A stretch of 42,881 nt of DNA from Bacillota bacterium (GTDB lineage: Bacteria > Bacillota > Clostridia > Saccharofermentanales > UBA5734). A program made the translations under genes and the position numbers. Every line of letters starts with the position of its first letter. The stretch's first letter is position 1. The stretch spans positions 1-42,881 of the forward strand of contig JAKPNJ010000087.1 in the NCBI GenBank assembly GCA_029548445.1, read 5' to 3'. This document shows, in pieces, positions 5,182 through 22,431 of this stretch. Under the pieces are notes generated by a model. That model saw only the letters and a list, made by a program, of their open reading frames with translations. It searched no databases and was not told the origin of the DNA.

Positions 5182-5197
5182 TGGAGACCTCCTGGTG

Positions 5198-7363
5198 CTA
5201 TTTGATAAATTCGCTCGTTTCGGTATAAAGATAGACTTCTTGGGGGAGCGCCGCTTTCCGGAGCATATCCTCCGACTGAAAAACCGTTATCCTGTCCCCG
5301 GGGCCGATCCGAACCGGCGCTTTCCCGGACCCGGCTTCCTTGCGGACAGCCGCAGCGCCGATGGTCATGCGGCCTGCAAACTGCTGGACAGTTGCGTAGT
5401 CCAGCAGGACATGGTTCTTGCCGGTGGCCACGATCCGGATCGATCCGATCCGGCAGGACTCGGGGATCCAGGGAACCAGCCAGCGGGTGACAAAGCGCCG
5501 GCCCAGGTAGAACATGCTTTGCAGCTGTCCGACCAGCCTGTCGTACTGCTTTCTTTGCAGGAACTTCAGTTGGGTGGGTGTGTCGATCTGGTAGAACGCC
5601 ACCGCATGGTTCCTGGAGAATCTCTTCTTTGCAATGAGACCGGTCACATAGGCAATCGCGGCCAGTCCGGCCAGGACGAGGAGAATGAACACCGACCACT
5701 TGATCCACCAGGAAATGTCGGCGATGTCCAGCAGGACCGTATGGTCGGCCTGTTCATGGGGACGGTCCGTCTTCAGCCGCATGGACACCCGGATCTGTCC
5801 CACCTGGGTTAAAGGCATGAACGGATGCATTTCAGGCTGGAGGAGAAAAACGCCCTCCGCTGCGTCCCGCCTGGCGGAAAGCCGGGCCCCTCCGCTGTCG
5901 AGAATGTCCAGGGTCATCCGGGCCACCTCTTCGGGCGTCGCCCGGACACCTTCGATATAGGGGACCAGGCGGATCGGCGGTGTCGACCCCAGCGCTCCGT
6001 ATGAGGATCGCCATACCCCCCCGATTTCGTCCCGCAGCTCGATCTTTCGGACATCGAAAACTTCGAACTGGATCTCCTGCTCCGTCCGATAGAAGTCCTC
6101 GATCTCCGCTGTGGCCCGGATTGACATGGGTCCCTTCTCCAACTCGAAATGGACGGAGGGATCATCGAACGTCCGCGTGACCCCATTCTGTTCGACAACG
6201 ATCCGGTAGCGGAGGGCATCCGGCATCAGGTCCGCCGGAATGACGCGGCCTGATACGGCATCCGTGAACTCAAGCCGCAGGGAGAACCGGTCTCCCATCC
6301 GGAAGACGGCGGTATCCGGATCCGTGACAACCACGTCGTTCTGGAGGATTTGGATGCGCGAGAAGACCGCCGGCTCATACAGGACCTCGATGGCCTGGGG
6401 ATCGACGTCCCCCGAGAAGTGCACTTCAACGTCTCCGGGAGGAATGACATCCTGCAGGTCCTTCGGAAAGACCTGGGCCAGGCACCCGAAGATCATGCCC
6501 GCCGGACTTTCCATCCGGTAGATGTCTTCGGCGCTGTACTCCATGGAGACCCCGCCGATGGTGACATTGGAAACGCCGATGGCCCTGTTTTGCGACAGGA
6601 TGACCAGTTTCCTCAAGCTTAGTTGGTTCCGGAAGAGGATGCTGTCTTCCCTGGCCTCGAGATACCGGGCACTGGCCCTGGCCCGGCCGCTGACCAGGTC
6701 CGCGATTTCCTGCATCCGCGCGACGATTTCGTCGGCTTGCGACTGGTAGGCAAAGAATCCATTCTCCGGTTCGGACTGGAATATGGCCGCATCCGACCCG
6801 ATGGCGAAATAGGCGACCCGGGGGGTTACCTCCGGAACGACAGCGGTCCTGGCGAACTCCTTCAGCCGGCGCTCGACCTGTGCCGGGTCCTCGGCCCTGT
6901 CCCTGGACCTCTGCATGATGCCATCGGACAGGACGATCAGCCAGCATTCGGTATTGGGCAGGATCCGTTTCTTCTGATCCCTGAATACGTCCATGGCGGT
7001 TTGCACCGCTTCATAGGGCGTATATCCCCCTCCCTCCGGCGCATACCGGAGCGCGTCGATGGCGGACTGCCTGTCCTCCTGGATTGGAACCTCCACGGCC
7101 GTATCGGGTTTGCCCATACGGGTAACATACAGGATGTCCTGGCGGTCCAGCAGGGCGCACAGGGTCTGGAGCGCATAATTGGCCTGGTCGCTCTTGCCTT
7201 CCTGCTGCATCGATCCGGAATCGTCATAGACGATGGATATAAAACGCTGCGGATACAGGAAAGCGGCGGACACGGGTACACGGGGACACAAGGCGAGCAG
7301 GACGAGCACCAGGGTCAGCGCCTGGAAAACTGGATGGCCTCCCTGTCTCAGACTCCGCTCCAT
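5198..7363 (-). CDS. Exported von Willebrand factor A domain protein with C-terminal TM segment and cytosolic tail
   Basis: Signal peptide (FQALTLVLVLLALCPRVPVSAA), MIDAS motif FISIVYDDSGSM, later TM WWIKWSVFILLVLAGLAAIAYVTGLI followed by about 130 aa of tail. Confidence 0.85.
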   Translation of the reverse strand: MERSLRQGGHPVFQALTLVLVLLALCPRVPVSAAFLYPQRFISIVYDDSGSMQQEGKSDQANYALQTLCALLDRQDILYVTRMGKPDTAVEVPIQEDRQSAIDALRYAPEGGGYTPYEAVQTAMDVFRDQKKRILPNTECWLIVLSDGIMQRSRDRAEDPAQVERRLKEFARTAVVPEVTPRVAYFAIGSDAAIFQSEPENGFFAYQSQADEIVARMQEIADLVSGRARASARYLEAREDSILFRNQLSLRKLVILSQNRAIGVSNVTIGGVSMEYSAEDIYRMESPAGMIFGCLAQVFPKDLQDVIPPGDVEVHFSGDVDPQAIEVLYEPAVFSRIQILQNDVVVTDPDTAVFRMGDRFSLRLEFTDAVSGRVIPADLMPDALRYRIVVEQNGVTRTFDDPSVHFELEKGPMSIRATAEIEDFYRTEQEIQFEVFDVRKIELRDEIGGVWRSSYGALGSTPPIRLVPYIEGVRATPEEVARMTLDILDSGGARLSARRDAAEGVFLLQPEMHPFMPLTQVGQIRVSMRLKTDRPHEQADHTVLLDIADISWWIKWSVFILLVLAGLAAIAYVTGLIAKKRFSRNHAVAFYQIDTPTQLKFLQRKQYDRLVGQLQSMFYLGRRFVTRWLVPWIPESCRIGSIRIVATGKNHVLLDYATVQQFAGRMTIGAAAVRKEAGSGKAPVRIGPGDRITVFQSEDMLRKAALPQEVYLYTETSEFIK

Positions 7364-7413
7364 ATCCGCCGGCCTCCGGGTCCGCTACATTCTCCTGAAA
7401 ATCGTATCCTGGC

Positions 7414-7899
7414 TCAGCTGATCTCCGACGGATCGAGATATCCCTTGGCCACCGCGAAGAACTTGTCATCGTACCGCTCGACGGTCGAGTGGATGACCCG
7501 GATGACCAGGGGGATCAGTTCGATGCCGATGATGCTGTCGACAAAGGGGATGTTGACATCGAATTCCGGCATGCCATCGCGGAAATCCATGGAGAAGTAC
7601 CCGATCATCATGCCGTAGTTGGCCCTTGCCAGGGCCTCGCAGAAGACCGGGAATCGTTCCTTGTCCACCTTGAGCTGGAAGAAGCTGGAGAACAGGAGCA
7701 TTTCCCGCTGGGCATTGACCGAAATCACCATCTGGTGCTCGAGGTCCTTTGTCCTGTAGTGGAACGAGTAACGGAAATTTTCCTCGTCCACCTTCAGGCC
7801 CTTGATCTCGAAATCCTGCATGACCTGTCCGATCATGTCGAAAAGGCCCCGGGCCTTCTCCATCTTCTCCTGCGGGATCGTTTCATTGGAATCGCTCAT
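7414..7899 (-). CDS. YbjN-like / type III secretion chaperone-like small protein
   Basis: 161 aa; fold-like pattern NFRYSFHYRTKDLEHQMVISVNAQREMLLFSSFFQLKVDKERFPVFCEALARANYGMMIGYFSMDFRDGMPEFDVNIPF. Confidence 0.65.
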   Translation of the reverse strand: MSDSNETIPQEKMEKARGLFDMIGQVMQDFEIKGLKVDEENFRYSFHYRTKDLEHQMVISVNAQREMLLFSSFFQLKVDKERFPVFCEALARANYGMMIGYFSMDFRDGMPEFDVNIPFVDSIIGIELIPLVIRVIHSTVERYDDKFFAVAKGYLDPSEIS

Positions 7900-7911
7900 G
7901 CTCGTCTCCTT

Positions 7912-10209
7912 TCATTTTTCGGTCCGGAATCCGATGGGATTCGACATCCGGACCTTGGCTCTCTTGTTCTCCTCTTCCTTCTGGATTTCCTGGATCGCCT
8001 GCAGGACATCGTCCGTTTCCATCGTCCGCAAGGCCTCCGGGTCCAGCTGGTTCGTCCGGATCACCCTTTCCGCCAGCTTGGCTGTAGCCCGTTCCACCAG
8101 GTTCCGGACATACCGGCCGTTGCCGAAGTCCTCGTCGCTTTTCCGGAGCGGGAGGGACTGGAAATGCCGCTGGATTTCCTGCTCGGCGCCTTCCGAGATG
8201 CGGATCGAGGGTCCGGCCAGTCGATGGAATATCTGGACGAGCTCGCCGGAAGTGTAGTCCGGAAAATCGATGTAGTGGGCGACACGGCTGTTCATGCCGG
8301 GATTCGACTGAAGCATGGACTTCATTTCGTCCCGATATCCGGCCAGGATGACGACCGTGTCATGCCGGTGGGCTTCCATAAAGGAAATCAGGGTGCTGAT
8401 TGCCTCCTTGCCGTAGGCGTCCCGTTCGTCGAGCATCAGGGAATAGGCTTCATCGATGAACAGGACCGATCCGACAGCCTTTTCACAGGCGCGGGCGGTC
8501 AGCTTGGCCGTATGACCCATATAGGCGCCGATGAGGTGCTCCCGGGAGACCTCGAAGAACTCCCCGTGCTTCAGGAGACCCAGTTCCTTGAAAATGCGGC
8601 CGAGCAGACGCGCCACGGATGTCTTGCCGGTGCCCGGATTGCCCGTGAAGGCCATGTGCAGGCTGTTGTCCCGGGCGAGGCCGCCAGTTTCCTGGATCAG
8701 GCGGTTCCATTTCTGGAACCGGGCGATTTCGAGCACCTTCTTCTTGACCTCGTCCAGTCCGATGAGCTGGTTCAGTTCTCCCTCGGCGGTATCGACACCC
8801 GGTTTCATCCTCTCCTTCACGAGACCGGACAACACGTTCCGGACCGAGGTCCGGGATTCCTCGGCGGAGTCGGACTTGAGATTCCGGCTGGCCAGGAACC
8901 GATAGGCCAGTTCCCTTGCGATCTTGTCGGCTGTCTCATACTGATAGAAGCGGCCGTCCGACCGTTCCTGGTCGATCAGGCTCCGGACCAGGGATCGGCA
9001 GTCCTCGTCGGTATCCAGTTCGATGTCAAATTCCTTGAGCCTTTTTCGTACATGCTGATACAGCTCCTCGTCGCCGGGAATGACGATTCGGACAGGTTCG
9101 AGAAAGAATCGGTCCGAAAGCTTTCTCCTCAGCTTTTCGAAATATCCTTCATCATCGGACAGCAGCAGGAAGACCATGACATTTTTGTCTTCCTGGCGGT
9201 ACAGCCGCTCGATCACCAGGTCCAGCGCCTCGAGTCCCCGGGTCGAATCCGCCGGAAGGGGGACGATACAGACCGATCCGTGGCGCTTCGAGAAGGTCTC
9301 CTCGAGCTGCCGACCGATCTCGGTCTTCCCGTTTTGCAGTTCTTCCCAATCGATATCGATGGTGCGAATCGGATCCATCCTGGCCGAGTCCAGGACATGA
9401 TACTCACCCAGGATTGTCCGCAACAGATGGTAGGCCGGATCCAGGGTCAGGCCCGGTGCCGATTGGACCAGGAGGTGGGGTACGCAGTTCTTTCGACGCT
9501 CCGGGGGGACCTGGGCCAGGGCGGCCGCAATCCTGCCAAGGGTTCGGGCGAACCCCTCGAGCCCGGGAACGCGCTCCAGGAGCCGAAGCTGGGATGCAAC
9601 GCCATCCTGGGAGGGAGTCGCAACGGGCTGGCCGGGCAACTCCTCGGCCCTTTCCGGCTCGTCCGGACTCTCGACAGGAACGGGCGGTTTCGCCTTCCCG
9701 GGAGGCTCCGCGTTCCCGGGAAGTTCCGGCGGAATCTCGATCCCCGGCTCGGCCCCCTTGAGGGATCGAAGGAATGCGTCGGTCTCGTTCCGCAGTTCCT
9801 TCGGGAGATAGCCCGAGCCGCACAGGGTCAGGAGATCGGGCAGGTCGTCCGGGGCGACCTTGAGGATGCGGACATATACCTCCTGCGGCGCCAATTCCAG
9901 GCGATCACTTATCCGGCCGCGGAATAGGCCGGTATCGGGCAGCAGGAGGGAGTCCATTGGCGCCCCATGCGAATCGGGCGACCCGGGCAGGACCAGGAGA
10001 AAGTGGTGGGTGTCGACTGCCCGATGCAGGACGAACAGGCGCCCTCCCTCTTCCTTCAGGTCGAAGGGAAGCGCATCCACTACAAGGTCGCGAAACTGGA
10101 ATGTTCGGTTCAGGAGATTGTTGACCCTGGGGATTCGGATACTGTCCTTTGAGATGCGAATGACGAGGCGTACGATTCCTTGGTGATCCGGTCCCGGCTG
10201 CTCCGTCAT
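7912..10209 (-). CDS. CbbX/SpoVK-type AAA+ ATPase with ~450-aa N-terminal extension
   Basis: Walker A FTGNPGTGKTSVARLLG, Walker B SVLFIDEAYSL, sensor VVILAGYRDEM, C-terminal FGNGRYVRNLVERATAKLAERV. ORF track starts at 10215; ATG at 10209 has better RBS spacing from gggag. Confidence 0.9.
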   Translation of the reverse strand: MTEQPGPDHQGIVRLVIRISKDSIRIPRVNNLLNRTFQFRDLVVDALPFDLKEEGGRLFVLHRAVDTHHFLLVLPGSPDSHGAPMDSLLLPDTGLFRGRISDRLELAPQEVYVRILKVAPDDLPDLLTLCGSGYLPKELRNETDAFLRSLKGAEPGIEIPPELPGNAEPPGKAKPPVPVESPDEPERAEELPGQPVATPSQDGVASQLRLLERVPGLEGFARTLGRIAAALAQVPPERRKNCVPHLLVQSAPGLTLDPAYHLLRTILGEYHVLDSARMDPIRTIDIDWEELQNGKTEIGRQLEETFSKRHGSVCIVPLPADSTRGLEALDLVIERLYRQEDKNVMVFLLLSDDEGYFEKLRRKLSDRFFLEPVRIVIPGDEELYQHVRKRLKEFDIELDTDEDCRSLVRSLIDQERSDGRFYQYETADKIARELAYRFLASRNLKSDSAEESRTSVRNVLSGLVKERMKPGVDTAEGELNQLIGLDEVKKKVLEIARFQKWNRLIQETGGLARDNSLHMAFTGNPGTGKTSVARLLGRIFKELGLLKHGEFFEVSREHLIGAYMGHTAKLTARACEKAVGSVLFIDEAYSLMLDERDAYGKEAISTLISFMEAHRHDTVVILAGYRDEMKSMLQSNPGMNSRVAHYIDFPDYTSGELVQIFHRLAGPSIRISEGAEQEIQRHFQSLPLRKSDEDFGNGRYVRNLVERATAKLAERVIRTNQLDPEALRTMETDDVLQAIQEIQKEEENKRAKVRMSNPIGFRTEK

Positions 10210-10243
10210 TTCCATTCTCCCGTCGTTGTCTCATTCTTTAATC

Positions 10244-10305: not shown

Positions 10306-13269
10306 CTAAGAAACATCGATCCACCCGGGTTCATCCACCGAAACGAATGTGAGTGCTTCAACAGGTACATATGCGCTGTACTTAAAGGCATTCAAATGGT
10401 CATTCTCATTGTGATTCAGATAGAACTCAGTCCACCACTCGAGTAGGCGTGGCAGTTGTTGCCCTTTGGGGTTAGGTGGCATCATTTTCTCAATTATCCC
10501 GTGCAGCAAAGACTCATTCGTCTCAGTATCATTAGCCTCTCTACGAAAACCATCAAAAATATCAAGCAGGGGTTCGTATTCATGATATCCCCAATCTATC
10601 AGTAACTGCATGGCTTTCTCTAAAATCGGACGAGCTGCCAAACAAGTCAGTCTCTTCTCATAGAATATAGCCAGTTCCTTCTCGCAGCGATTTTCATGAT
10701 GTAAAGCATGCAAAGAGTCAACCGAATATCGAAAAGCAAGTATGATGCAAAGGACTGGCAACGTCAGGTCAAAGTCAAGACCTGTCGGTTTCTCATGACA
10801 CATGATACTGAATGCTCCTGCATAAGATTGACTGTAACTGATTTGTAGATCAAAACGAATATCAGTTTGCGGGGCGCTGCAAAAGAAAAGTCGAATCATA
10901 CGAAAAGTCGCAATTTGGATCTCGTTCCATAGGCTTCGTATACTATGTCTTGCATCCGGGAAACTGGCAGAAGCAAGCAAATAACATTCGACGAAATGGG
11001 TGTCCAATCCCCAGTATGTGGTGTTGTATATCTCCTCGAACGGCCTATTTTCAAATTTGCGAAATAACGGGTCCAAAAAATCGGATCGAACATCAAGGAT
11101 TTCAAACTTCCTAATCGTAGGCGATTTTTCGCTGGATACTATTGAAATCTCTTGTGCATTGATAATACTATTCGGTGCCGGAGGAGACTCAATCCACTTG
11201 TACGAGAATATTCTGGTTCCACTCATCCATTTCCTTAAGACAAGTCGGGTTGCCGGGTTGGCGATAACCTGGGTTGCCTTGCCTTCGCCTGGTTTTGAGC
11301 AGTTCGGGTTATACTCGATACGAAGTGAATCCTGAACCCCAAGCACTGTCAGTTCATCGAGTGCCTCCTGCACCAAGGCTTTGGCATCCTCATACTGATC
11401 CCAGACCATTGAATCATCCAGCGGCAGGGTAACGGACAACCGCTCGAGATGGAAGGCAGCGAGAGACCGAAATTCCCGGACCGGGTTGCCGACGAGGTTC
11501 AGGACTCGCAGGTCCTGCAGCTCCGGAAGGGCTGGGATTTGGGCAATCCGGTTGTTCTCCAGGTCCAGTTCCGCGATATTGCCGAAACGAGGAATGAGGT
11601 CGAGTGTGTCGAGACCGCGGCCGGACAAGTCCAGGATCCCATCGCGGGCCAGGTCGAAGGCGTCGTCTGCATCGAGCCGGATTCCGCCCAACTCGATCGA
11701 TTCGACTGCCAGGACATAATCGAGAATGCTTCTTGCAGTCAATGGCGCCGCGTCGGACAGGACCAGGTCAGGCCTGCCGACAATGGCCGAAAGAAAGGAT
11801 TCCTCCTCCGTCATCCGCGGGCTGTCAATCGACAACACAAGGTCGTTCCGAACCGACTCATTTCGATGGAGGGCCTTCGCATATAAGCCCGGAAGATCCG
11901 GCAGGCCCTGCCTTTCGATCCAAGCATATCGGTCCTGAAAAGTGAGTCTGGCATTCGCAAGATAATCGGCCATAAAGAATTGGTAGAGGATCCGGTGCTG
12001 GAATTCCAGTCGATCCTCGCCGCACACCCGCATAAGGTTGCGGGTAACGAGACTGATACGGCCTATATGGTTCAAGGGATCCAGGGAAGCGGCTTCTTCC
12101 CTGGACAGGCTGTATTCCTGCCGTTCGGCCATGTGCGCGATGCAAGCCCGAAGATATGCCAGCGATTTCTCCCGATAGGCCTCCAGATTGTCCGGCATCT
12201 CGCGTTCGAGTCTCACAAGAATCCTGTGTTCTCTCGGAATCCAGTACTCATTGACCATGCGGTCGATCATGTCAAAGACATGATCCCGGGTCATGTCACG
12301 ATCGCTGCAGACAGAAAAGAAGATGTCGGCGTATTGGATCAGGAAGGGTATCCGAAACACCGGGCAATCCGTCGACCGCAGATACCGGCGCATCCTGGCG
12401 ACATTCTTTCGGAGCGGTGTACCGATTCTCGGGAGGACTGGGTCTTCAAAGACCCTGTTGTCGCAACGGCGATACAAGTTCATGATCTGCCGATTGTCAA
12501 ACTCATCAATATCAAACAGGGCAAATCCGGGCCGTCCGGCGATGGGATCCGCGACCCGGGATGCATTCGACCGAAACGGTTCCGCCCGGGAGGAAATGAA
12601 CAACTGGGCCAGCTTTTCGCCGACCCTTCGATCATCGTGAATGAAGGTTCGGATCCGATCGAACAGGACTTCGGCCTCTCCCACCTCGTCCAGCTCCCGG
12701 ATCTCGTCGAATCCGTCCAGGAATACGCGCACCTCGGGCGCTGTCGATTCCCGAATCATGTCCCGGAGGATGGCCAAATGCGCATCGAAAGTCGTTCCGA
12801 TCGCATCCAGGGTCATGAAAATGACGCCGTGGTTCGCGAGGGTGTCCCGATCGCTGCGCCGCACCCATTTCTTCCGAAGCCGGAAGGCGAGCTGCTGCAT
12901 CAGGATCGATTTCCCGATGCCGCATTCACCGAGGATAAAGACCAGAGGCTCATGCCGGATCAGTCGCATGAACTGCCTGAACCCCAGTACATCGCCGCTT
13001 CGCAGGTTTTCCCTGTAAGCCTTGGGAGAAGACCGGATCCGGATCCGATGCGGAACATATCGCCTAAATTGTTTTCGGAATTCCCGACGCCCCTGCGGAT
13101 CAGTCAGCCGGCAGGCTTTCGCCAATCCGTCGAGAACTTTGCGCCGGCCCGTCAGGATACGCTGGACTACGAAAATCCCCCCATATATCAGGGGAACCCA
13201 TTCCAGAATCTGCAAAATGTTCGCGAGGTCCGACAGCTCGGGGGGCAGGATATGGAAGAAGCGAATCAT
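10306..13269 (-). CDS. NACHT-type STAND NTPase with leucine-rich repeats and distinct C-terminal domain (bacterial NLR-like)
   Basis: N-terminal hydrophobic segment WVPLIYGGIFVVQRIL; Walker A FILGECGIGKSILMQQLAFRL; Walker B VRVFLDGFDEIREL; LFISSRAEPF; LRR stretch LDLSGRGLDTLDLIPRFGNIAELDLENNRIAQIPALPELQDLRVLNLVGNPV; then about 330 aa with no recognised motif. Confidence 0.85.
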   Translation of the reverse strand: MIRFFHILPPELSDLANILQILEWVPLIYGGIFVVQRILTGRRKVLDGLAKACRLTDPQGRREFRKQFRRYVPHRIRIRSSPKAYRENLRSGDVLGFRQFMRLIRHEPLVFILGECGIGKSILMQQLAFRLRKKWVRRSDRDTLANHGVIFMTLDAIGTTFDAHLAILRDMIRESTAPEVRVFLDGFDEIRELDEVGEAEVLFDRIRTFIHDDRRVGEKLAQLFISSRAEPFRSNASRVADPIAGRPGFALFDIDEFDNRQIMNLYRRCDNRVFEDPVLPRIGTPLRKNVARMRRYLRSTDCPVFRIPFLIQYADIFFSVCSDRDMTRDHVFDMIDRMVNEYWIPREHRILVRLEREMPDNLEAYREKSLAYLRACIAHMAERQEYSLSREEAASLDPLNHIGRISLVTRNLMRVCGEDRLEFQHRILYQFFMADYLANARLTFQDRYAWIERQGLPDLPGLYAKALHRNESVRNDLVLSIDSPRMTEEESFLSAIVGRPDLVLSDAAPLTARSILDYVLAVESIELGGIRLDADDAFDLARDGILDLSGRGLDTLDLIPRFGNIAELDLENNRIAQIPALPELQDLRVLNLVGNPVREFRSLAAFHLERLSVTLPLDDSMVWDQYEDAKALVQEALDELTVLGVQDSLRIEYNPNCSKPGEGKATQVIANPATRLVLRKWMSGTRIFSYKWIESPPAPNSIINAQEISIVSSEKSPTIRKFEILDVRSDFLDPLFRKFENRPFEEIYNTTYWGLDTHFVECYLLASASFPDARHSIRSLWNEIQIATFRMIRLFFCSAPQTDIRFDLQISYSQSYAGAFSIMCHEKPTGLDFDLTLPVLCIILAFRYSVDSLHALHHENRCEKELAIFYEKRLTCLAARPILEKAMQLLIDWGYHEYEPLLDIFDGFRREANDTETNESLLHGIIEKMMPPNPKGQQLPRLLEWWTEFYLNHNENDHLNAFKYSAYVPVEALTFVSVDEPGWIDVS

Positions 13270-14042
13270 GGATCCCTCATGGCAGCGAAAGACTATGAAA
13301 CGGCGTTCATCGCTCCAATGACGATCGCACGACCCATCGGAACGAATCCAGCTTCTTGGGTCTTATTGTACCGTATAAGGCGTGCTACTGCGAGACGCAA
13401 TCAAACGAAGAACCCAGCCTGCCGATACACGCCGATGCTCAATCCCCTCTACGCGGGGCAAAGAAAGACTACGCTTCTAATAGCATTTCTCTGAATCCGA
13501 GTGCAAGGACGGGGCATTGCAGTCACCCACCCTTTCACGAACGGCCTTGCTCAAGCCAGATACGCCCATGATAGCCGGTTCGGTAACCCTTCTTCATGTA
13601 ACAATCCTCACATCCTGTTGCTCCATCAGGTATATGTTACAGAATGATGACAGCCTTTGCCGCTTGCTTTATTGCCGTATCCATTGTCCGGATAAGCCTT
13701 TGTGACCGTCTATCCAGGGAGGAAGTCCCGATGAAAGGAGGTCCAGCCACAACCGGTCAGGCCAGAACAAGGCATGGCGTAATCAGGAACTTGCAGCACA
13801 TTGCGAAAGGACGTTGAGAATCCGTTCAGACACAATTGATTCCTGACACGGCGGTGAGGCTCCCCTGCTGACGAATCCGAGATAAGGCGGACAGTCCGTC
13901 AGCAACAGAGTACCCAAGCGACTCGAATTCAATCCGATCATCCGATGCGATGAACTATCGACTGTCCCACATAGGGCAGGCGTGCCATTCCGTCCGCATA
14001 TCAAGGCGAATGAGAAACTACTGATTGGGAGGCAAGGAACCG

Positions 14043-15860
14043 ATGGGGAAAGGCCCTGACCAACCAAGCATCCAGGAACTCGAGGGATTGGCGGAAGAAT
14101 ACGATACCCTCATGGAAACAAAGGAGGAAGAGAACGAGAAGACACCGAGTTTTGACGAACTGATCCGGAAGGTGTCTCGAATCCCCGGATCAGCTAGGTG
14201 TGTGGAAGTCCTGGTCGAACTGGACAGGATTCTCGGCCAGATGCCCGAGGAACAGCGCCTCCAGAATTGCCCGGGATTCCTGGTCCGGCTCCGGCCCAAG
14301 GGGATGGACATCAACTCCCTCTATGAGGCCATGCATGCCCTCAATGTCAGGCACAAGGTCCTGAAGCCGCCGGTGTCGAAATTCCCGTTTGAACTCGATA
14401 TGGATTGGGCCCGCTTCGAGAAGGATCCCCGGGACTGCCATACGGGTCTCCTGTTCGCAAGGATCAACCACGGATCGGCCCTGGCGATCTTCGAGATTCC
14501 AAGGGACATCGTGACCCGTCTCTCCGTGCTGGACGCGGTCATGGCCAAGTACGCGACATTAAGGGGAAAGTTCACCTACTGTATCGTCATCCAGGACCCC
14601 CTGGATCCCGAGGAACTCCAGCAGATCCGATCGGTTCTGGACAAGCACCTGTACACGATCACCCTGGACATCCAGCCGACCGACGAGGAACTGGTTGGCG
14701 CTATCCTGGACGGAGCCAGGGAATCCGGAGCATCATTGACAAGCGAGTCCGAACTGCGAAACCAGCTGATCGAATCCCTGGCCAGGGAGAAGGAGGGCAA
14801 GGATTTCAACTTCTCCACTTTCGCGGAACGGGCGACTATGGTCCTGCTGTATGGCGACCTGGCCCGGTCCCATGCTCCTATGGAGGCAGCACCCCTGCCG
14901 GAAGACCATATCCAAAAAAGAGAGGAGATCGCCAAAACCCGCCTGCAGGGAAGCCTTCGGAAGCTGGATCGGTTGGCAGGGCTTGCGGATCTGAAGCAGA
15001 AGGTCCGTGAGATCCTGATGTTCCACCAGTGGCGCCAAATGGCAGGCGTCGAGGATGAGGACGTCGGAAACCCGAGCCTCCACATGGTCTTTCTGGGAAA
15101 TCCGGGTACGGGGAAAACCCTCGCGGCCCGGCTGATCGGGGAGATATTCCGGGAGGCCGGCATCCTGACACAAGGGGACTTCCATGAGGTCACTCGAACG
15201 GACCTGGTCAGCCAATATATCGGACAAACGGAGCAGAAAACATTGGAAGTATGCAATAAGGCGATCGGATCCGTGCTCTTCATCGACGAAGCATACGCCC
15301 TCTACTCGGAGGAAAAGGGCAGGGACTTCGGAGAACAGGTCATCAACACCCTTCTTCCCTTCATGGAAGAGCATCGCAGGGACACGGTGGTCATCCTCGC
15401 GGGATACACAAACGAGATGCTGCGGCTTCTCTCGATGAATCCGGGACTTCGGAGCCGAATCGCCCACACCATCGCATTTGCAGACTACATGGCCGAGGAA
15501 CTGACCGAGATCTTCCTCCAGCAGATGGGGGAGGCCCTGACCCTGGCGAACCCGGCCAGAAGCCGGCTCGAACGGCACTTCGAACGGATCGCCAGCCTCA
15601 CCCGCACGGATTCCAGAATCGGGAATGGGCGGTATGCCCGAAACCTCTATGAACGGTCCATCCTGAAGATGGCCGAACGGGTTGTCCGGGATGGCATCCA
15701 GGATGCCGAGAGACAACGAATGCTGGTTGAGGCGGATATCGAAGCCGCTTCCCAGGAACTCCTCAAGGGGGTGCTGGATCCGAATCTCAGAATCATCCGG
15801 CCCATCGGATTCCAGGGGCTGTCCCAGGAATCCACGGAACGTGACAACCGGATCGCCTAG
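14043..15860 (+). CDS. Second CbbX/SpoVK-type AAA+ ATPase with a related N-terminal extension
   Basis: Walker A FLGNPGTGKTLAARLIG, Walker B SVLFIDEAYALYS, VVILAGYTNEM, IGNGRYARNLYERSILKMAERV. RBS gggagg at 14027 favours ATG 14043 over the tracked 14025. Confidence 0.9.
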   Translation: MGKGPDQPSIQELEGLAEEYDTLMETKEEENEKTPSFDELIRKVSRIPGSARCVEVLVELDRILGQMPEEQRLQNCPGFLVRLRPKGMDINSLYEAMHALNVRHKVLKPPVSKFPFELDMDWARFEKDPRDCHTGLLFARINHGSALAIFEIPRDIVTRLSVLDAVMAKYATLRGKFTYCIVIQDPLDPEELQQIRSVLDKHLYTITLDIQPTDEELVGAILDGARESGASLTSESELRNQLIESLAREKEGKDFNFSTFAERATMVLLYGDLARSHAPMEAAPLPEDHIQKREEIAKTRLQGSLRKLDRLAGLADLKQKVREILMFHQWRQMAGVEDEDVGNPSLHMVFLGNPGTGKTLAARLIGEIFREAGILTQGDFHEVTRTDLVSQYIGQTEQKTLEVCNKAIGSVLFIDEAYALYSEEKGRDFGEQVINTLLPFMEEHRRDTVVILAGYTNEMLRLLSMNPGLRSRIAHTIAFADYMAEELTEIFLQQMGEALTLANPARSRLERHFERIASLTRTDSRIGNGRYARNLYERSILKMAERVVRDGIQDAERQRMLVEADIEAASQELLKGVLDPNLRIIRPIGFQGLSQESTERDNRIA

Positions 15861-15898
15861 AATCGATCTGCAGGAGGACTGTACGGAATGGAGGCGGC

Positions 15899-18478
15899 AT
15901 GATGCATCGATCGGAACTGAGAGCCCACTCGGTCCATGGCACGGGAAGTGCCTGTACCGTGGAGCGATTGGCGGCATGGGCGGCGGGGCAAGGGCTGGAG
16001 GCCCTTGCCATCGCCGACTACCGGAGCACGCTGGCAGCATCGGAGATCTCCCGGTTGTTGCCCGAGATCAGGAAACGGGAGAACCCGCTCAAGCTGGTCA
16101 TCGGGACCGTGCTGACCATCCATGACGACTCCGAGACCATGGACGGGTTTGATATCGTCCTTCTGGCCCGGAATGCCGCCGGTTTTCGCAACCTGAACGG
16201 CCTTCTCTCGGCAAGCGGGACCGATCGCGGCACAAAAAGTGCGAGGCTTGTCCGCAGGGACATCCAGGATCGGCGGGAGGGGCTCCTGGTCGGGGCCTCC
16301 TCCTTCCGGGGGGAGTTCTCGCATCCGGGGACCGGGCAGTACGGCGATACGGAACTCGAGTCCCGTATTGGGTTCTATGACTACATCGAGATCCTGCCCC
16401 CTGTCTTTGGCCCGGACTTCACGGACCCCGCGTCCCTGATCCGGATTGCGGACCGCTTGGGGGTTCCGGCAGTCGCGGTGGGAGACCAGCGGGCGGTGGA
16501 CGAAGCCGACCTGCTGGCCTTAAAGATTCTCTACGAGAACCAGGTTTTCAAGTCCTCCGCCTATCCCCTGGAGGGCTTCCGTAATGGGCGTCCCGGTATC
16601 GGATGGACAACCGGCGCCATGCTGAAGGCGATGTCCTTCCTGGGAGCCAGGACAGCCTATCGGATCGTCGTGGAGAATCCCCGAACGATCGCCAGTCGGA
16701 TCGAATCGTTCGATCCCATGGAAGAAGGGGGAAGCGAGCAGCAAAGTGCCCCAATCCGTGAAACAGCCCTCGATGGCATGCTGCGGGAAGCGCTGGTGCG
16801 GTATGGAAATCCCCCGCCTCCCGAAGTCACGGAACGGCTTCGGAACGAGCTCGGGTGGATCGGCCGGAATCGGCTTGCAGCAGGCATCGAATGGGTTTGG
16901 AATCTATCGTCCGCAGCCCGGCAGGATGGGCTGCCGCTCGAACTGGGCGGGGTGTTGGGAGGCACCCTGGCCGCGAGCCTGCTGGGCCTGACGGAGGTCA
17001 ATCCCCTGGCGACCCACATTCTCTGCCCTGCTTGCAGGAAAGCCTGGTTCCCGTCCAGTCCGGAGTATCGCAAGGCCGCGGACCTGGTATGCCCGATCTG
17101 CGGGGGTCCCTGCCGGGACGAAGGGGATGATCTCCCCTGGGCCCTGTTTCCCGAGTCAATCAACGCAATCGAAAGCCTCCTGAAGGTCAGGGGGCCCCTG
17201 GATTGCATCCCCCCGCTGGTTGAGCGTCTGCGGGAGTGCGACGGCGTCCAGGAGGTCTTCCGGGTCCTGGGCCAGTACCGGATTGGGTATATCCATGCCT
17301 ATCATCTCGTCAGCAGGATTCCGGCAGAAGAAGATTTCTGCCGAGATCCGCTGCTGGATGCCTTCGATATCGACGATGTCATCGAGAGAGTCGCCGCGAT
17401 GTCATCCTCCATGCGGGTCCATCCGAAGCGCCTGGCCGTAGTGCCTTCCGGAGTCAATCCCCACGGCCTCTCCCCTATTTATCAAACGGTCTCCGGCCAC
17501 CAGGCCCTCCTGATGGACGCCGTTGCAGCCAATGGGACGCCAACCAGGATGGATGTGGAGCGGGATCTCTCCCTGACACTGGTTCACGACCTCATGTTGC
17601 GGACCGGCGTGGAACCCGGGGATCTGCGATCGGCCGGCACTGACCCGATTGCCATTTCACTGTTCGAATCCGAACAGGCCCTGGGGATCGACCTGTCGGC
17701 TCTCGGGTGTCATGTCGGCACACTGGGAATTCCGGTGTTCGGTTCCCGGAGCGCCAGAAAAGTGCTCAAGGAGTACCCAGTCTACGACTTCCCGGATCTT
17801 GTGGGGATGTGCGGTGTTCTGGATGGATTCTGGGTCTATCCGGATTCCAGGGTCGAGTTCATTCGGCACCTGTCCGATCGAGCGGAGGGCATCGCCGCAA
17901 CCGTCGAGGACGCGCATCGGTGCCTGGTTCAACACGGTGTAGCCCCAGCACAAGCGCTGGACCTCATTCGCCTGATCCGGAGGGGAGTGGCGAGAACCGA
18001 CGAGGAATCGGAGGAACTTGGGATGTCCCTCCGGTCGATTCGATGGCCGTCCTGGATGGCCGAATTCTACCTGAGCATCAACTCCCTGATGGGCAAGGCC
18101 GCCGCCATCCAGCAGGCGCGCCGCGTGTTGGCACTCGCATGGTTCAAGATCCACTCACCCGAGGCCTACTACCGATCCGTGCTCGGCCGCTGTCCTGGCT
18201 TCGGAACAAGGGAGATCGGCCTTGTACGGAAAGGCCCTCAGGCCATTCTGGATGAACTTCGGAGAACCAGTCTCGTCCAGACCTCGGGACAAGTCAATGG
18301 AAAGCGCGAAGCCCTGGCCATCGCCTACGAAATGATCTTGAGAGGAGTCGAAATCGATGGAGAGAAAGACGAATGGAGCGCAGCCTGCCGGCAAGGGAAA
18401 GGAAAAGTCTATCGAGCCGAACTCGGGAAAAGCCCGGCAACTAACCGAAGGGTTCAGAACCTTCCTGAAGCGCTTTGA
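15899..18478 (+). CDS. PolC-type DNA polymerase III alpha homolog, exonuclease-less and predicted catalytically inactive
   Basis: Colinear with PolC: eroded PHP domain (IADYRST, GFDIVLLARNAAGFRNLNGLLS, GLLVGASSFRGE, FYDYIEILPP), zinc ribbon LCPACRKAW..CPICGGPC, LTEVNPLATHILCP, VHPKRLAVVPSG, VGTLGIPVFGSR, FKIHSPEAYYRS. Catalytic PDIDLNFS equivalent is absent. Confidence 0.8.
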   Translation: MMHRSELRAHSVHGTGSACTVERLAAWAAGQGLEALAIADYRSTLAASEISRLLPEIRKRENPLKLVIGTVLTIHDDSETMDGFDIVLLARNAAGFRNLNGLLSASGTDRGTKSARLVRRDIQDRREGLLVGASSFRGEFSHPGTGQYGDTELESRIGFYDYIEILPPVFGPDFTDPASLIRIADRLGVPAVAVGDQRAVDEADLLALKILYENQVFKSSAYPLEGFRNGRPGIGWTTGAMLKAMSFLGARTAYRIVVENPRTIASRIESFDPMEEGGSEQQSAPIRETALDGMLREALVRYGNPPPPEVTERLRNELGWIGRNRLAAGIEWVWNLSSAARQDGLPLELGGVLGGTLAASLLGLTEVNPLATHILCPACRKAWFPSSPEYRKAADLVCPICGGPCRDEGDDLPWALFPESINAIESLLKVRGPLDCIPPLVERLRECDGVQEVFRVLGQYRIGYIHAYHLVSRIPAEEDFCRDPLLDAFDIDDVIERVAAMSSSMRVHPKRLAVVPSGVNPHGLSPIYQTVSGHQALLMDAVAANGTPTRMDVERDLSLTLVHDLMLRTGVEPGDLRSAGTDPIAISLFESEQALGIDLSALGCHVGTLGIPVFGSRSARKVLKEYPVYDFPDLVGMCGVLDGFWVYPDSRVEFIRHLSDRAEGIAATVEDAHRCLVQHGVAPAQALDLIRLIRRGVARTDEESEELGMSLRSIRWPSWMAEFYLSINSLMGKAAAIQQARRVLALAWFKIHSPEAYYRSVLGRCPGFGTREIGLVRKGPQAILDELRRTSLVQTSGQVNGKREALAIAYEMILRGVEIDGEKDEWSAACRQGKGKVYRAELGKSPATNRRVQNLPEAL

Positions 18479-18713
18479 TGGAAAGGCGAAGCATGAGGAG
18501 TTCAAGGAATTCCTGGAGTCGTATTCTGAAATGCTCATCGGAATGCATGGACGTCTCGTTGAACACAATGCCGACTTGAAGACGATCCGGGAACGCCTCG
18601 AGCACACGGAACAAAGTCAGGCAAGGCTTGGAAAAATGCTGGTTGGCCTGTTGGTCCTTTCCGCTGTGGCCGTGGTCGTCGCCATGACGGCGCTCCTCGT
18701 CTCACTCGGATGA
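18357..18713 (+). CDS. Small coiled-coil protein with C-terminal TM anchor
   Basis: 118 aa; RBS gaggag before ATG; helical HGRLVEHNADLKTIRERLEHTEQSQARLGKMLVG then LLVLSAVAVVVAMTALLVSLG. Overlaps the preceding CDS by 122 bp in another frame. Confidence 0.6.
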   Translation: MERKTNGAQPAGKGKEKSIEPNSGKARQLTEGFRTFLKRFDGKAKHEEFKEFLESYSEMLIGMHGRLVEHNADLKTIRERLEHTEQSQARLGKMLVGLLVLSAVAVVVAMTALLVSLG

Positions 18714-18756
18714 GTCGGCCGAACGATCGGCAAGGCGGCATCCGGTTGGGGGGCAA

Positions 18757-19668
18757 GTGCGAATGGAACTGGATCCCAGGATCAAGGAAATCAGGGACTA
18801 CTACGTAAAAAGGCGCAACACTCGAGAGGACACCCTGGCGGCGGGCCTGGGCATGGCCGGCGAATGGCTCGATCAAATGGACGATATCGACCATCTGCCG
18901 GAGCCGCTCAAAGAAGCCTTCCGGCTCGCGTTCCCAAGCATGACGGAATCGGACATCGAGCACCTGGGCGAGGCAGGTAAAGCCGGCGTACTGCAGGCCT
19001 GGAAGGGCAAGTTGTTCGAGGTCATGGTCCGGGACCAACTGAATGCCGGCGTGCCTGTGGGCGAGCTGCGGCTGGCAGTCGGCGAGAAGGCCGTACTGGC
19101 CGAATCCCTCAACGAACCTGGCTGGGATCTCCGGATCCTGGACTGGCGGGGTGTGGAAACCGGCAAGTACCAACTCAAGGCAACCGTATCCGAGGAGCAT
19201 GTCCGGGAATCGCTCCAGCGGTATCCCGACTTCCGGATCATTGCCACGGACGATGTATCGATGGAGGATATCCTGCCCGGGGGACACACGAACTCGAGCC
19301 TGGCTGGCCAGGTGTCCGATGCCATTGATGACCTGGCAGCCCATGACCTGCAGGACATCCTCGGGGACCTGCTTCCCTACCTCCCCTTTATCCTGATCAT
19401 CGGGTCGGAAGGATTGCGGGCCGCGATCGGACGGAAGCCCCTGGTCAGGGCTTTCGTCGACGCGGGAGTCCGCGGCGCCAAATGTCTCAGCGCCCGGACG
19501 GTTGGATTCCTGGTCCTGTCCATAGGACTCGGGCCGCTCTCCATTCCCGCTTCCATGGCGACCCGATATGGCATCGACCGGGCGCTCTGGACGTTCCGTG
19601 AGAAGGCATTGCTCAGGCAAAAGACAGAGGAGATCCGCGGATTGCCGAAGTTTCGGCGATCCCCTTGA
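18757..19668 (+). CDS. Putative PD-(D/E)XK nuclease-like protein with hydrophobic C-terminal region
   Basis: Motif spacing WKGKLFEVMVRDQL...PGWDLRILDW...GKYQLKATVS matches E..., D..., QxK of the restriction-endonuclease fold; hydrophobic LPFILIIGSEGL and FLVLSIGLGPLSIPASMA. Start GTG 18757 or ATG 18763. Confidence 0.65.
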   Translation: MRMELDPRIKEIRDYYVKRRNTREDTLAAGLGMAGEWLDQMDDIDHLPEPLKEAFRLAFPSMTESDIEHLGEAGKAGVLQAWKGKLFEVMVRDQLNAGVPVGELRLAVGEKAVLAESLNEPGWDLRILDWRGVETGKYQLKATVSEEHVRESLQRYPDFRIIATDDVSMEDILPGGHTNSSLAGQVSDAIDDLAAHDLQDILGDLLPYLPFILIIGSEGLRAAIGRKPLVRAFVDAGVRGAKCLSARTVGFLVLSIGLGPLSIPASMATRYGIDRALWTFREKALLRQKTEEIRGLPKFRRSP

Positions 19669-19735
19669 TCTGTCAATTTTCGTGTGGCATTGTCAATTAA
19701 AAGTCATCATTTCTGATATGACATCGGAGGTGCAG

Positions 19736-21517
19736 ATGGACGGACTCATGGACGGCTTCATTGAACTGACGAAAACGATGGACCCCGGCACCCAGGTGCG
19801 CGTGACCTGCACGGGCCAGGCGAACAAAGAAATCAGCGGCGAATTGGTTGGATGCCAGTGGAACCTCATCATCCTGCAAACGGGTTCGTCCCGGGTCGCG
19901 ATTCGGGCGGACCAGGTCGTCTCGCTGGAGTACCCGAACGGCCATGCGATCGGCCAGATGGAGTCCATACCGGTCAGATCCCTATCCAGGCAGGAAGTTC
20001 CGGTTGGTCCCGTGGGACCGGGTCCCTCTCCAGTCGCTTCAGCATCCGGTGTCCATTCGGAAAACACGGAGCCCAGGAATGAAAATGAAGAGGAACGTCA
20101 GGCCTACAATCCCGTCCGGCTGGACCAGCAGCTGCTGTTCAGGATCGGGCAGGAATTGAAGCTGAGTTGCCACGACCGACACGGCCGCAAGTGGGAGCAC
20201 CTGCAGGACTCGATCCGGTACCTGATGAAGGTCCACGAATTTGATGACCGCTTCGGGCGATCGGCTCCCCTGATCAAGAAACTGGACGGGATCCTCGCCA
20301 AGTGCAGTGCCCCGTCCCTGTCTCTCCTGCGCGCCTATCTGCTCCACCTGTCCGGGAAGAAAGGCGACGCGCATCGCTATCTCATGGAACTCGGACTTCG
20401 GAAGGAACTGATCGACCTGGTCGTTGTCTGCGAAGGGCCGGAAGGCTTCCTGCCGGAGTACATGACGCCATATCTCTTCGAATCCCTCTCCATTCCGGGT
20501 CCGATTCAATGGATGATCGAGAATGATCCGCTGCCAGGCAGGCCGAGAACGGAGGAGGATACATGGCAACGGCTTGCTGGTCGGATTGTGGAACTCCAGG
20601 CAAGCATAAGCCAGCCATCAGTCCTGGGCGATTCCCATGTTCTTCTGGATTCCCTGGGCAGGTTGTCCTGCAGTACCGGAATCGGACGAATCATGCCCAG
20701 TACGACGATCAGTCGCAACACCTCCTATGCGCGGCATGTGGAACCGCTGAAGCCGGTTCCGGGAGGCCCGGACAATCCGATTCATTCATTCTTGAGCGAC
20801 CGTGGCCTTATCATCAAGGATACGATCCAGAATCCGACCTTCTACCTCTATGACAAACCGGATGTCATGAAGATCATCGAGTACATCGGGCTGCACTACG
20901 AGTGGATTCTGCCGGTCTATCGGGCCATTCGGAGCTGCATGCAGGATGGAGGCAAGTTCACCTTGAACTGCACCGGCTACAACAACAAGATCATCACAAC
21001 CTGCATGCAGTTCTGTTCCCTACTGCAGCAGGCGGGTTTCATGACGGGATACAAGTATTCGAACAATCCCCATATCCAAATATCCGGAAAAGTCTCCTCT
21101 GCGCCTGAGTTCCAGGGCCTGATGTCCGGAGGGTGGCTGGAGTACTATGCCCATTCGATGATCGAGGAAACGTTGCTGGAGATCGAAGCCAGCAAGGGAC
21201 CCTACGAATGGACGGCTACCCGCAATGTCTCGGCGGTGCTTCGGGATGGGACTGAAGTCGAATTCGACATCCTCGTTCTTGCAGATGGCATTCTGTACTG
21301 GGTCGAGGCCAAGACAGGGGTGTACAAGGATTCGATTACCAAGTACAACTGCCATGCCACGCATTTGGAGATGGATCGGTCCAGGGCATTCCTCCTGGCC
21401 ACAGAGGCTACGAGTGTCGACATCCGGAAGGACCACGGGTTGATCACTGTGGTCGACCTGACGACTTTCCGGGAGCGCTTTCGGTCCAGTGTATCAAGGG
21501 GGCTTCGGATGGCGTAG
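19736..21517 (+). CDS. LSm-like N-terminus, helical middle, Card1/DUF1887-like PD-(D/E)XK nuclease C-terminus
   Basis: RBS ggaggt precedes ATG 19736 (tracked start 19568 is an extension). N-term GTQVRVTCTGQANKEISGELVGCQWNLIILQTGSSRVAIRADQVVSLEYP; C-term GGWLEYYAHSMI...VEFDILVLADGILYWVEAKTG. Confidence 0.7.
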   Translation: MDGLMDGFIELTKTMDPGTQVRVTCTGQANKEISGELVGCQWNLIILQTGSSRVAIRADQVVSLEYPNGHAIGQMESIPVRSLSRQEVPVGPVGPGPSPVASASGVHSENTEPRNENEEERQAYNPVRLDQQLLFRIGQELKLSCHDRHGRKWEHLQDSIRYLMKVHEFDDRFGRSAPLIKKLDGILAKCSAPSLSLLRAYLLHLSGKKGDAHRYLMELGLRKELIDLVVVCEGPEGFLPEYMTPYLFESLSIPGPIQWMIENDPLPGRPRTEEDTWQRLAGRIVELQASISQPSVLGDSHVLLDSLGRLSCSTGIGRIMPSTTISRNTSYARHVEPLKPVPGGPDNPIHSFLSDRGLIIKDTIQNPTFYLYDKPDVMKIIEYIGLHYEWILPVYRAIRSCMQDGGKFTLNCTGYNNKIITTCMQFCSLLQQAGFMTGYKYSNNPHIQISGKVSSAPEFQGLMSGGWLEYYAHSMIEETLLEIEASKGPYEWTATRNVSAVLRDGTEVEFDILVLADGILYWVEAKTGVYKDSITKYNCHATHLEMDRSRAFLLATEATSVDIRKDHGLITVVDLTTFRERFRSSVSRGLRMA

Positions 21518-21714: not shown

Positions 21715-22431
21715 ATGAAGCCGGACCGGGAGCTGGTCGTCGAAACCCTGATGCAGGAGCACCAGACTGCGCACCAGCGCGTCTTCAACCAGGTCAAGCT
21801 GTACGAGTCGACGAACATCCGGATCCTGATGCTGATGGGGGTTCTGCTGTACTTCGGGATATCCGGGTTTGGCCTTCTGGATGACCGGTACCTCTTCCAT
21901 ATCACCAACATCGTCTTCCTCGTCATCATCCCCTTTATCGCCACGGCCTCGGTGGCCATTACCGCCGCGAACCTGGTCAAGATCATGGTCCTCGGCCTCT
22001 TCCTGAAATCGGTCGAGGACAAGGTCAACCGGGTCCTGGAGACCGAGGCGGTCCATTTCGGATTCGCGAAGGGCCAGGTCCTGGACTGGGAGAGATGGCG
22101 GCTCGAGGACGGGTATGCCAACCGTCGGAACATGATGTCCGAGCTGACATTTTCCGCCATCCTGGTCGTCACGTTCTTTCTCACCTCGGTCCTGGCCGTC
22201 GTCCTCCGTCTCCAGTTCCTGTTCGAGGCGGCGCCCGAATATGCGGTGTTCCCCCTGGTGGTGTCGTGCCTCAACGGCGTCCTGTTCATCGCCACTGCGA
22301 TCGTCTCCATCCTCCTGGTTGTCTCGAAGCGTCGGGAGGTCATGATTCGCACCGGCATCGTGCCGTCTCCCGATCCCGTCCCGGTTGTCCCGGGTGCTGC
22401 GCCTCCCGAACCCGACGGATCCGCCGGATGA
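21715..22431 (+). CDS. Multi-pass (about 4 TM) membrane protein of unknown function
   Basis: RBS ggagg; hydrophobic segments ILMLMGVLLYFGISGFGLL, IVFLVIIPFIATASVAITAANLV, LTFSAILVVTFFLTSVLAVVLRL, FPLVVSCLNGVLFIATAIVSILLVV. Confidence 0.7.
   Translation: MKPDRELVVETLMQEHQTAHQRVFNQVKLYESTNIRILMLMGVLLYFGISGFGLLDDRYLFHITNIVFLVIIPFIATASVAITAANLVKIMVLGLFLKSVEDKVNRVLETEAVHFGFAKGQVLDWERWRLEDGYANRRNMMSELTFSAILVVTFFLTSVLAVVLRLQFLFEAAPEYAVFPLVVSCLNGVLFIATAIVSILLVVSKRREVMIRTGIVPSPDPVPVVPGAAPPEPDGSAG

What the first reader, a model, noticed from the sequence alone, without database searches (positions are those of the whole stretch)
10306..21517. Candidate new conflict/defence system: divergent NACHT-LRR block and AAA+/pseudo-PolC/TM/two-nuclease operon
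Around a ~770-bp gap are a STAND sensor-type NTPase and, divergently, a closely spaced operon: AAA+ (38 bp) pseudo-PolC (overlap) small TM (43 bp) PD-(D/E)XK-like (67 bp) LSm-Card1-like nuclease. Sensor, remodelling ATPase, nucleic-acid-binding scaffold, two putative nucleases and a membrane anchor are parts typical of bacterial immune or NTP-dependent conflict systems. I do not recognise this gene order from any named system.
Basis: inference. Interest (0 to 1): 0.87.

Follow-up and report, generated by a model that had tools for sequence, protein, structure and literature searches.

The report
Dead polymerase operon with two nucleases
In one uncultured Firmicutes-like bacterium, a catalytically dead copy of the replication polymerase sits in an operon with an ATP-driven remodelling protein and two nucleases; one nuclease and its membrane partner form a mobile pair that other bacteria carry, sometimes inside a known antiviral (BREX) locus, so the operon is probably an antiviral locus, though the full set was seen in no other genome searched.

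Summary
14043-21517(+) is a tight five-gene operon: SpoVK/CbbX-type AAA+ (w6); pseudo-PolC (w7); coiled-coil/TM protein (w8); PD-(D/E)XK-type nuclease with hydrophobic tail (w9); and a protein ending in a CARF-less Card1/Can2-type nuclease (w10). A NACHT-LRR protein (w5) is divergent. w7 has lost its first catalytic Asp, most PHP metal ligands, the HhH region and the clamp motif; both nuclease active sites look intact. No other genome searched holds the five-gene set: w10 orthologues were absent from 399 phylum and 98 nearer genomes, and w7 matched only true PolC. But w8-w9 is a portable pair: all 24 loci found (at least four phyla) carry a coiled-coil gene directly upstream of the nuclease, and four place the pair between PglX and PglZ-BrxL of BREX loci. 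w6 is a paralogue (34%) of the AAA+ in the adjacent tubulin/vWA/YbjN operon, which resembles published NTP-dependent conflict systems that carry inactive enzymes as decoys. Best reading: a composite, lineage-specific conflict locus with pseudo-PolC as replisome decoy/sensor, AAA+ as switch, nucleases as effectors. Defence is inferred from context, not tested.

The parts
10306..13269 (-). w5: NACHT/STAND NTPase with a short LRR stretch and an unassigned C-terminal region
   Evidence: Walker A residues 114-121, Walker B 182-190; Pfam NACHT 7e-4, AAA_16 1.9e-4, LRR_4 6.6e-5, all below gathering score; lowest GC3 of the genes tested (0.60); no full-length relative in 57 close genomes
13270..14042 (.). 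773-bp gap between divergent w5 and w6, presumably carrying both promoters
   Evidence: no Rfam family in the window; no notable repeats or sigma-70-like sites in the gap
14043..15860 (+). w6: SpoVK/CbbX/EccA-type AAA+ ATPase with an N-terminal domain shared with w4
   Evidence: 34% identity with w4 over 574 columns including the N-terminal domain
15899..18478 (+). w7: pseudo-PolC, with PHP, palm, thumb and fingers regions only; catalytic and PHP metal residues degraded; no Exo insert, N-terminal domain, HhH region or clamp motif; Cys4 zinc site kept
18357..18713 (+). w8: coiled-coil protein with C-terminal TM helix and motif EFxExYxxxLxGMH; partner of w9
   Evidence: profile built without w8 finds it at 7.4e-10, about 30 bits above any other window ORF; same gene upstream of w9 homologues
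18757..19668 (+). w9: PD-(D/E)XK-type nuclease (E88, D124, Q139-L-K141) with a C-terminal hydrophobic helical domain; PADLOC PDC-M72B
19736..21517 (+). w10: N-terminal beta-rich segment (possible LSm, unconfirmed), helical middle, winged-helix-like segment plus Card1/Can2-type nuclease (E469, E509, D511, E524, K526); no CARF domain detected
7912..10215 (-). w4: paralogue of w6 heading the adjacent YbjN/vWA/tubulin operon; probable part of the same composite locus
7414..7899 (-). w3: YbjN-like protein
   Evidence: Pfam YbjN above cut-off; a relative lies next to a w4-like AAA+ in locus L077
5198..7363 (-). w2: vWA-domain protein with two hydrophobic helices
   Evidence: Pfam VWA 6.1e-5, just under cut-off; helices
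1762..5181 (-). w1: Tubulin_2 GTPase-like protein with long C-terminal extension
   Evidence: Pfam Tubulin_2 3.4e-48; homologues near vWA genes in L090, L092 and L094

Best explanation
A lineage-specific composite conflict (probably anti-phage or anti-plasmid) locus. Inferred mechanism: the dead PolC is a decoy or sensor for replication, bound by invader proteins that normally capture the host replicase, or itself binding abnormal primer-template. The CbbX/SpoVK-type AAA+ ring w6 works as an ATP-driven switch that remodels the w7 complex. The outputs are two nucleases: w9, held at the membrane with its coiled-coil partner w8, and w10, a Card1-type nuclease freed from cyclic-oligoadenylate control because no CARF domain was found. 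The NACHT-LRR protein w5 is probably a parallel sensor. Shown here: gene order, domain identities, loss of polymerase and PHP active sites, intact nuclease residues, and w8-w9 as a portable pair found inside BREX loci elsewhere. Inferred: that the five genes act together, what w7 binds, what the nucleases cut, and defence itself.
For: Tight co-directional genes with short gaps and one overlap. w7 is related to PolC over 735 residues, yet its first catalytic Asp, the surrounding motif, the FPKAHA motif and most PHP ligands are changed, and the HhH region and clamp motif are absent, while the Cys4 site and the third Asp remain: a conserved shape without polymerase chemistry. All 24 w9 loci found in GTDB genomes, across at least four phyla, have a w8-type or shorter coiled-coil gene directly upstream; in L052-L055 the pair lies between PglX and PglZ-BrxL genes, three of these also with PsyrT-PsyrA; some other flanks hold type I or II restriction-modification genes. 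PMC12839542 reports that PD-(D/E)XK nucleases, stand-alone or fused, are the commonest auxiliary effectors of BREX loci. w6 is a full-length paralogue of w4 in the adjacent tubulin/vWA operon; PMC7159879 describes firmicute tubulin-vWA conflict systems and inactive enzymes acting as decoys. No Cas1 in this 97%-complete genome, so w10 is unlikely to serve a local CRISPR locus.
Against: The five-gene set was seen once. w7 and w10 have no orthologue in the genomes searched, so their link to w8-w9 rests on adjacency alone. No expression or phenotype data. The w9 fold has no significant PDB match and the w10 model is poor. The flank comparison around w9 had no matched control set, and many w9 loci lie among ordinary metabolic genes. 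The state of w7's second catalytic Asp is alignment-dependent.
Confidence: 0.42

Rival explanations
1. Mosaic island: w6-w7, w8-w9 and w10 (and w5) are separate units that landed next to each other. Each may act in defence on its own; there is no joint mechanism.
For: w8-w9 occurs without w6, w7 or w10 in all 24 other loci; w10's nuclease relatives in Zoogloea and Dechloromonas are 324-329-aa proteins with no convincing relative of another window gene nearby; w5 has the lowest GC3.
Against: Short gaps, one overlap and a single strand suggest co-transcription; w8-w9 lies internally, between w7 and w10, not at an end; the paralogous AAA+ genes w4 and w6 tie the two operons together.
Confidence: 0.33
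2. A repair or translesion module: w7 is a dead polymerase used as a replisome adaptor, like inactive ImuB beside DnaE2, w6 remodels the fork, and the nucleases process DNA.
For: Inactive polymerase homologues serve in mutasomes (PMC12926913, PMC3919608); w7 keeps a PolC-like core with its Cys4 site.
Against: No clamp motif and no HhH region in w7; the membrane-tethered nuclease pair and its presence in BREX loci fit repair poorly; no w7 orthologue in close relatives.
Confidence: 0.13
3. Decaying foreign genes: w7 is a degenerating PolC copy and the cluster has no function.
For: Found in one genome; polymerase active sites lost.
Against: 859 codons open with coding-type GC3, a Shine-Dalgarno-like site, structural motifs and Cys4 site kept; nuclease catalytic residues intact.
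Confidence: 0.06

Closest known systems
NTP-dependent conflict systems of Kaur et al. 2020 (PMC7159879): GAP1-N2 tubulin/vWA systems and MoxR-vWA ternary systems
   Same: tubulin plus vWA proteins, STAND or AAA+ NTPases, membrane parts, and catalytically inactive enzymes proposed as decoys
   Different: no MoxR, GAP1 or VMAP component identified here; the AAA+ is SpoVK/CbbX type; the dead enzyme is a replicative polymerase, and 'PolC' does not occur in the text of that paper
PADLOC candidate PDC-M72 (component B)
   Same: w9 and the homologues scanned match PDC-M72B
   Different: no adjacent gene scanned matched a component A; the coiled-coil partner w8 is not named by PADLOC
Auxiliary nuclease effectors in BREX loci (PMC12839542)
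   Same: w8-w9-type pair lies between PglX and PglZ-BrxL in L052-L055; PD-(D/E)XK-type nuclease
   Different: the window holds no BREX core gene
Card1/Can2 CARF nucleases
   Same: nuclease region with GGWLEYY, E-F-D and EAK motifs
   Different: no CARF domain detected; N-terminal and helical parts unlike Card1; no Cas1 in the genome
Nuclease-protease pairs shared between immune systems (PMC12799240)
   Same: a two-gene nuclease unit reused by different immune loci
   Different: the partner here is a coiled-coil TM protein, not a protease; the nuclease is not of the metallo-beta-lactamase type
Exo-less PolC of Clostridia/Negativicutes (PMC3919608)
   Same: uninterrupted PHP; several of the best w7 matches are PolC with 1,160-1,270-aa open frames
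   Different: w7 lacks the N-terminal domain, HhH region, clamp motif and active sites
SpoVK-type ATPases in CoCoNuT/TerY-P extensions (PMC11090510)
   Same: SpoVK-family AAA+ in a vWA-containing conflict locus
   Different: no McrBC or TerY-P components identified here

Membership tests
PolC DNA polymerase | homology across PHP, palm, thumb and fingers | tested here: met
   735-residue alignment, 9.6e-55
PolC DNA polymerase | catalytic PDID motif and conserved active-site residues | tested here: not met
   first Asp replaced, DLNFSGEYQ and FPKAHA lost; third Asp kept
PolC DNA polymerase | HhH region and C-terminal clamp motif | tested here: not met
   w7 ends before both
SpoVK / CbbX / EccA equivalogues | score above the curated cut-off | tested here: not met
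   226.7 vs 422.95; 206.2 vs 459.25; 194.9 vs 466.65
PDC-M72 (PADLOC candidate) | component B | tested here: met
PDC-M72 (PADLOC candidate) | component A in the neighbourhood | tested here: inconclusive
   no adjacent gene scanned matched a component A, but the system's full definition was not available
PD-(D/E)XK nuclease (w9) | alpha-beta-beta-beta-alpha-beta core with E, D and (E/Q)xK | tested here: met
   but no significant PDB fold match and no nuclease assay
Card1/Can2 | nuclease motifs | tested here: met
Card1/Can2 | CARF domain | tested here: not met
   matches cover only the nuclease part of the profiles; the structure model is too poor to exclude a divergent one
BREX | PglZ plus BrxC, PglX or BrxL in the locus | tested here: not met
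   none among the window genes scanned
Kaur-type NTP-dependent conflict system | MoxR-vWA couple, or GAP1 GTPase with tubulin/vWA | tested here: inconclusive
   tubulin and vWA present; MoxR and GAP1 not identified; the contig ends beside the operon
Anti-phage defence system | reduced phage or plasmid propagation | not testable with these tools
   needs an experiment

The most novel reading that the evidence does not exclude
A new type of prokaryotic immunity in which a catalytically dead replicative polymerase acts as bait or sensor for replisome attack and, through a CbbX/SpoVK-type AAA+ ring, unleashes a membrane-tethered nuclease pair and a CARF-less Card1-type nuclease.
Probability: 0.22. 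Interest if true: 0.86.

Novelty: new variant of a known kind. Interest (0 to 1): 0.6.

Why it matters
If right, a dead copy of the bacterial replicase serves as an immune bait, and replisome takeover by phages becomes a testable trigger. Independently of that, the w8-w9 pair is a compact nuclease module with intact catalytic residues, found across several phyla and inside BREX loci, and known so far (as far as these tools show) only as an uncharacterised PADLOC component, so it can be tested at once.

Tried and rejected
Orthologues of w10 in plasmids and IMG/VR, and of w7 in plasmids, IMG/VR and Chloroflexota: only true PolC, or nothing; the Chloroflexota search had no positive control. w9 in plasmids, phages and IMG/VR: nothing. 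A sporulation or housekeeping reading of w6: rejected on NCBIfam cut-offs and rarity. An ordinary type III CRISPR effector reading of w10: no CARF found, no Cas1 in the genome. Single-sequence AF2 of w10 was too poor to search folds. Structure and profile searches of w9 against the PDB gave no significant match. Rfam, repeat and promoter scans of the divergent gap gave nothing useful.

Full report
Observation. The window is a whole contig (G000:C265) of a 3.03-Mb, 97%-complete assembly. Its PolC-bearing relatives, and L038, a locus from a record titled 'Clostridia bacterium' whose contig has the same length as the G383 contig of the same phylum, suggest a Bacillota-like host; the host was not identified directly. 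The described genes are present with the stated spacing, most with Shine-Dalgarno-like sites and all with coding-type third-position GC.

w7. It aligns with G. kaustophilus PolC over 735 residues. In an alignment with 23 PolC sequences, the host's own PolC among them, 105 of 259 near-invariant columns are kept. The first catalytic Asp and the rest of PDIDLNFSGEYQ are gone (the second Asp position depends on the alignment), FPKAHA has become MGKAAA, and conserved PHP residues at 8, 16, 41, 71, 85 and 198 are changed. The Cys4 zinc site and third Asp remain. The N-terminal domain, Exo insert, HhH region and clamp motif are absent. Several of the best matches are PolC with open frames of 1,160-1,270 aa and an uninterrupted PHP, consistent with the exo-less PolC of Clostridia and Negativicutes (PMC3919608). 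No orthologue of w7 itself was found in 98 close genomes or 399 genomes of the phylum.

w8-w9. w9 matches PADLOC PDC-M72B. One GTDB scan gave 24 loci in Bacillota, Bacteroidota, Chloroflexota, Pseudomonadota and one Saccharibacteria bin. All have a coiled-coil gene directly upstream; most of these end in a TM helix and share the motif of w8, which a profile built without it finds at 7.4e-10. In the L049 and L052-L056 group (mostly Burkholderiales/Rhodocyclales) the upstream gene is a shorter coiled-coil without TM. Two distant relatives from the phylum search (L036, L037) have a different gene upstream. E88, D124 and K141 are invariant and Q139 nearly so; the AF2 model shows the expected core. 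None of the 24 loci has a convincing w6, w7 or w10 homologue within the fetched flanks.

BREX context. L052-L055 share PglX-, PglZ- and BrxL-type genes around the pair. In L054 the order is PglX (E=0), PsyrT (2.6e-296), PsyrA (6.3e-139), coiled-coil, PDC-M72B nuclease, a 310-aa gene, PglZ (3.9e-304), BrxL (1.6e-303). L053 has the core genes but different genes in the place of PsyrT-PsyrA; L049 and L056 share only parts, L056 being cut by its contig end. PMC12839542 states that PD-(D/E)XK nucleases, stand-alone or fused, are the most prevalent auxiliary effectors in BREX and BREX-related loci. This is the strongest evidence for a defence role of any part of the operon.

w10. PADLOC CARF_PDDEXK profiles match the nuclease part only, and Can2 aligns weakly over the same motifs. 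Two relatives, 324-329-aa proteins beginning with a zinc-ribbon-like segment, were found in Zoogloea and Dechloromonas genomes; the catalytic residues align. No orthologue was found in 399 genomes of the phylum or in 98 closer relatives. The LSm assignment could not be confirmed.

w6 and the neighbouring operon. w6 and w4 are paralogues along the whole length of w6. w4 heads an operon with YbjN, vWA and Tubulin_2 genes; a w4-like gene lies beside a YbjN-like gene in a genome of the same order. Tubulin homologues in other genomes lie near vWA genes. PMC7159879 describes firmicute tubulin-vWA conflict systems and proposes that inactive enzymes act as decoys. The window fits that grammar, but its switch and dead enzyme differ.

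Synthesis. Shown: a compact operon with a dead PolC, an AAA+ with intact Walker motifs and two nucleases with intact catalytic residues; a portable w8-w9 pair used in BREX loci. Inferred: joint action and defence. Unresolved: whether the operon is one system or a mosaic. Neither w7 nor w10 was found in a second genome, so synteny cannot decide.

Noticed in passing
L052-L055; L054 2627-16343: BREX-type operon PglX, PsyrT, PsyrA, short coiled-coil, PDC-M72B nuclease, unassigned 310-aa gene, PglZ, BrxL. The 310-aa gene has no Pfam or PADLOC match and also occurs beside the pair in L049 and L056.
   Followed up: partly
window 1762-10215(-): Adjacent operon Tubulin_2, vWA, YbjN, AAA+ (paralogue of w6), with a further gene running off the contig start (2-2002, possible TM helices).
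   Followed up: partly
L098 1132-2106, L099 997-1986: Card1-type nucleases with an N-terminal zinc-ribbon-like segment and no CARF domain detected, in Zoogloea and Dechloromonas genomes.
   Followed up: partly
L051 11324-11785, L058 11319-11936: Phage terminase small-subunit-like genes directly beside the w8-w9 pair on the opposite strand, perhaps a prophage or remnant.
   Followed up: no
L036 7764-11307, L037 7255-10837: Distant w9 relatives without a w8-type gene; the upstream gene is a 212-222-aa protein of another kind.
   Followed up: no
window 21715-22431: Protein with about five hydrophobic helices just downstream of w10 (197-bp gap), no confident family; overlaps the start of the GDPD ORF as listed.
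   Followed up: no
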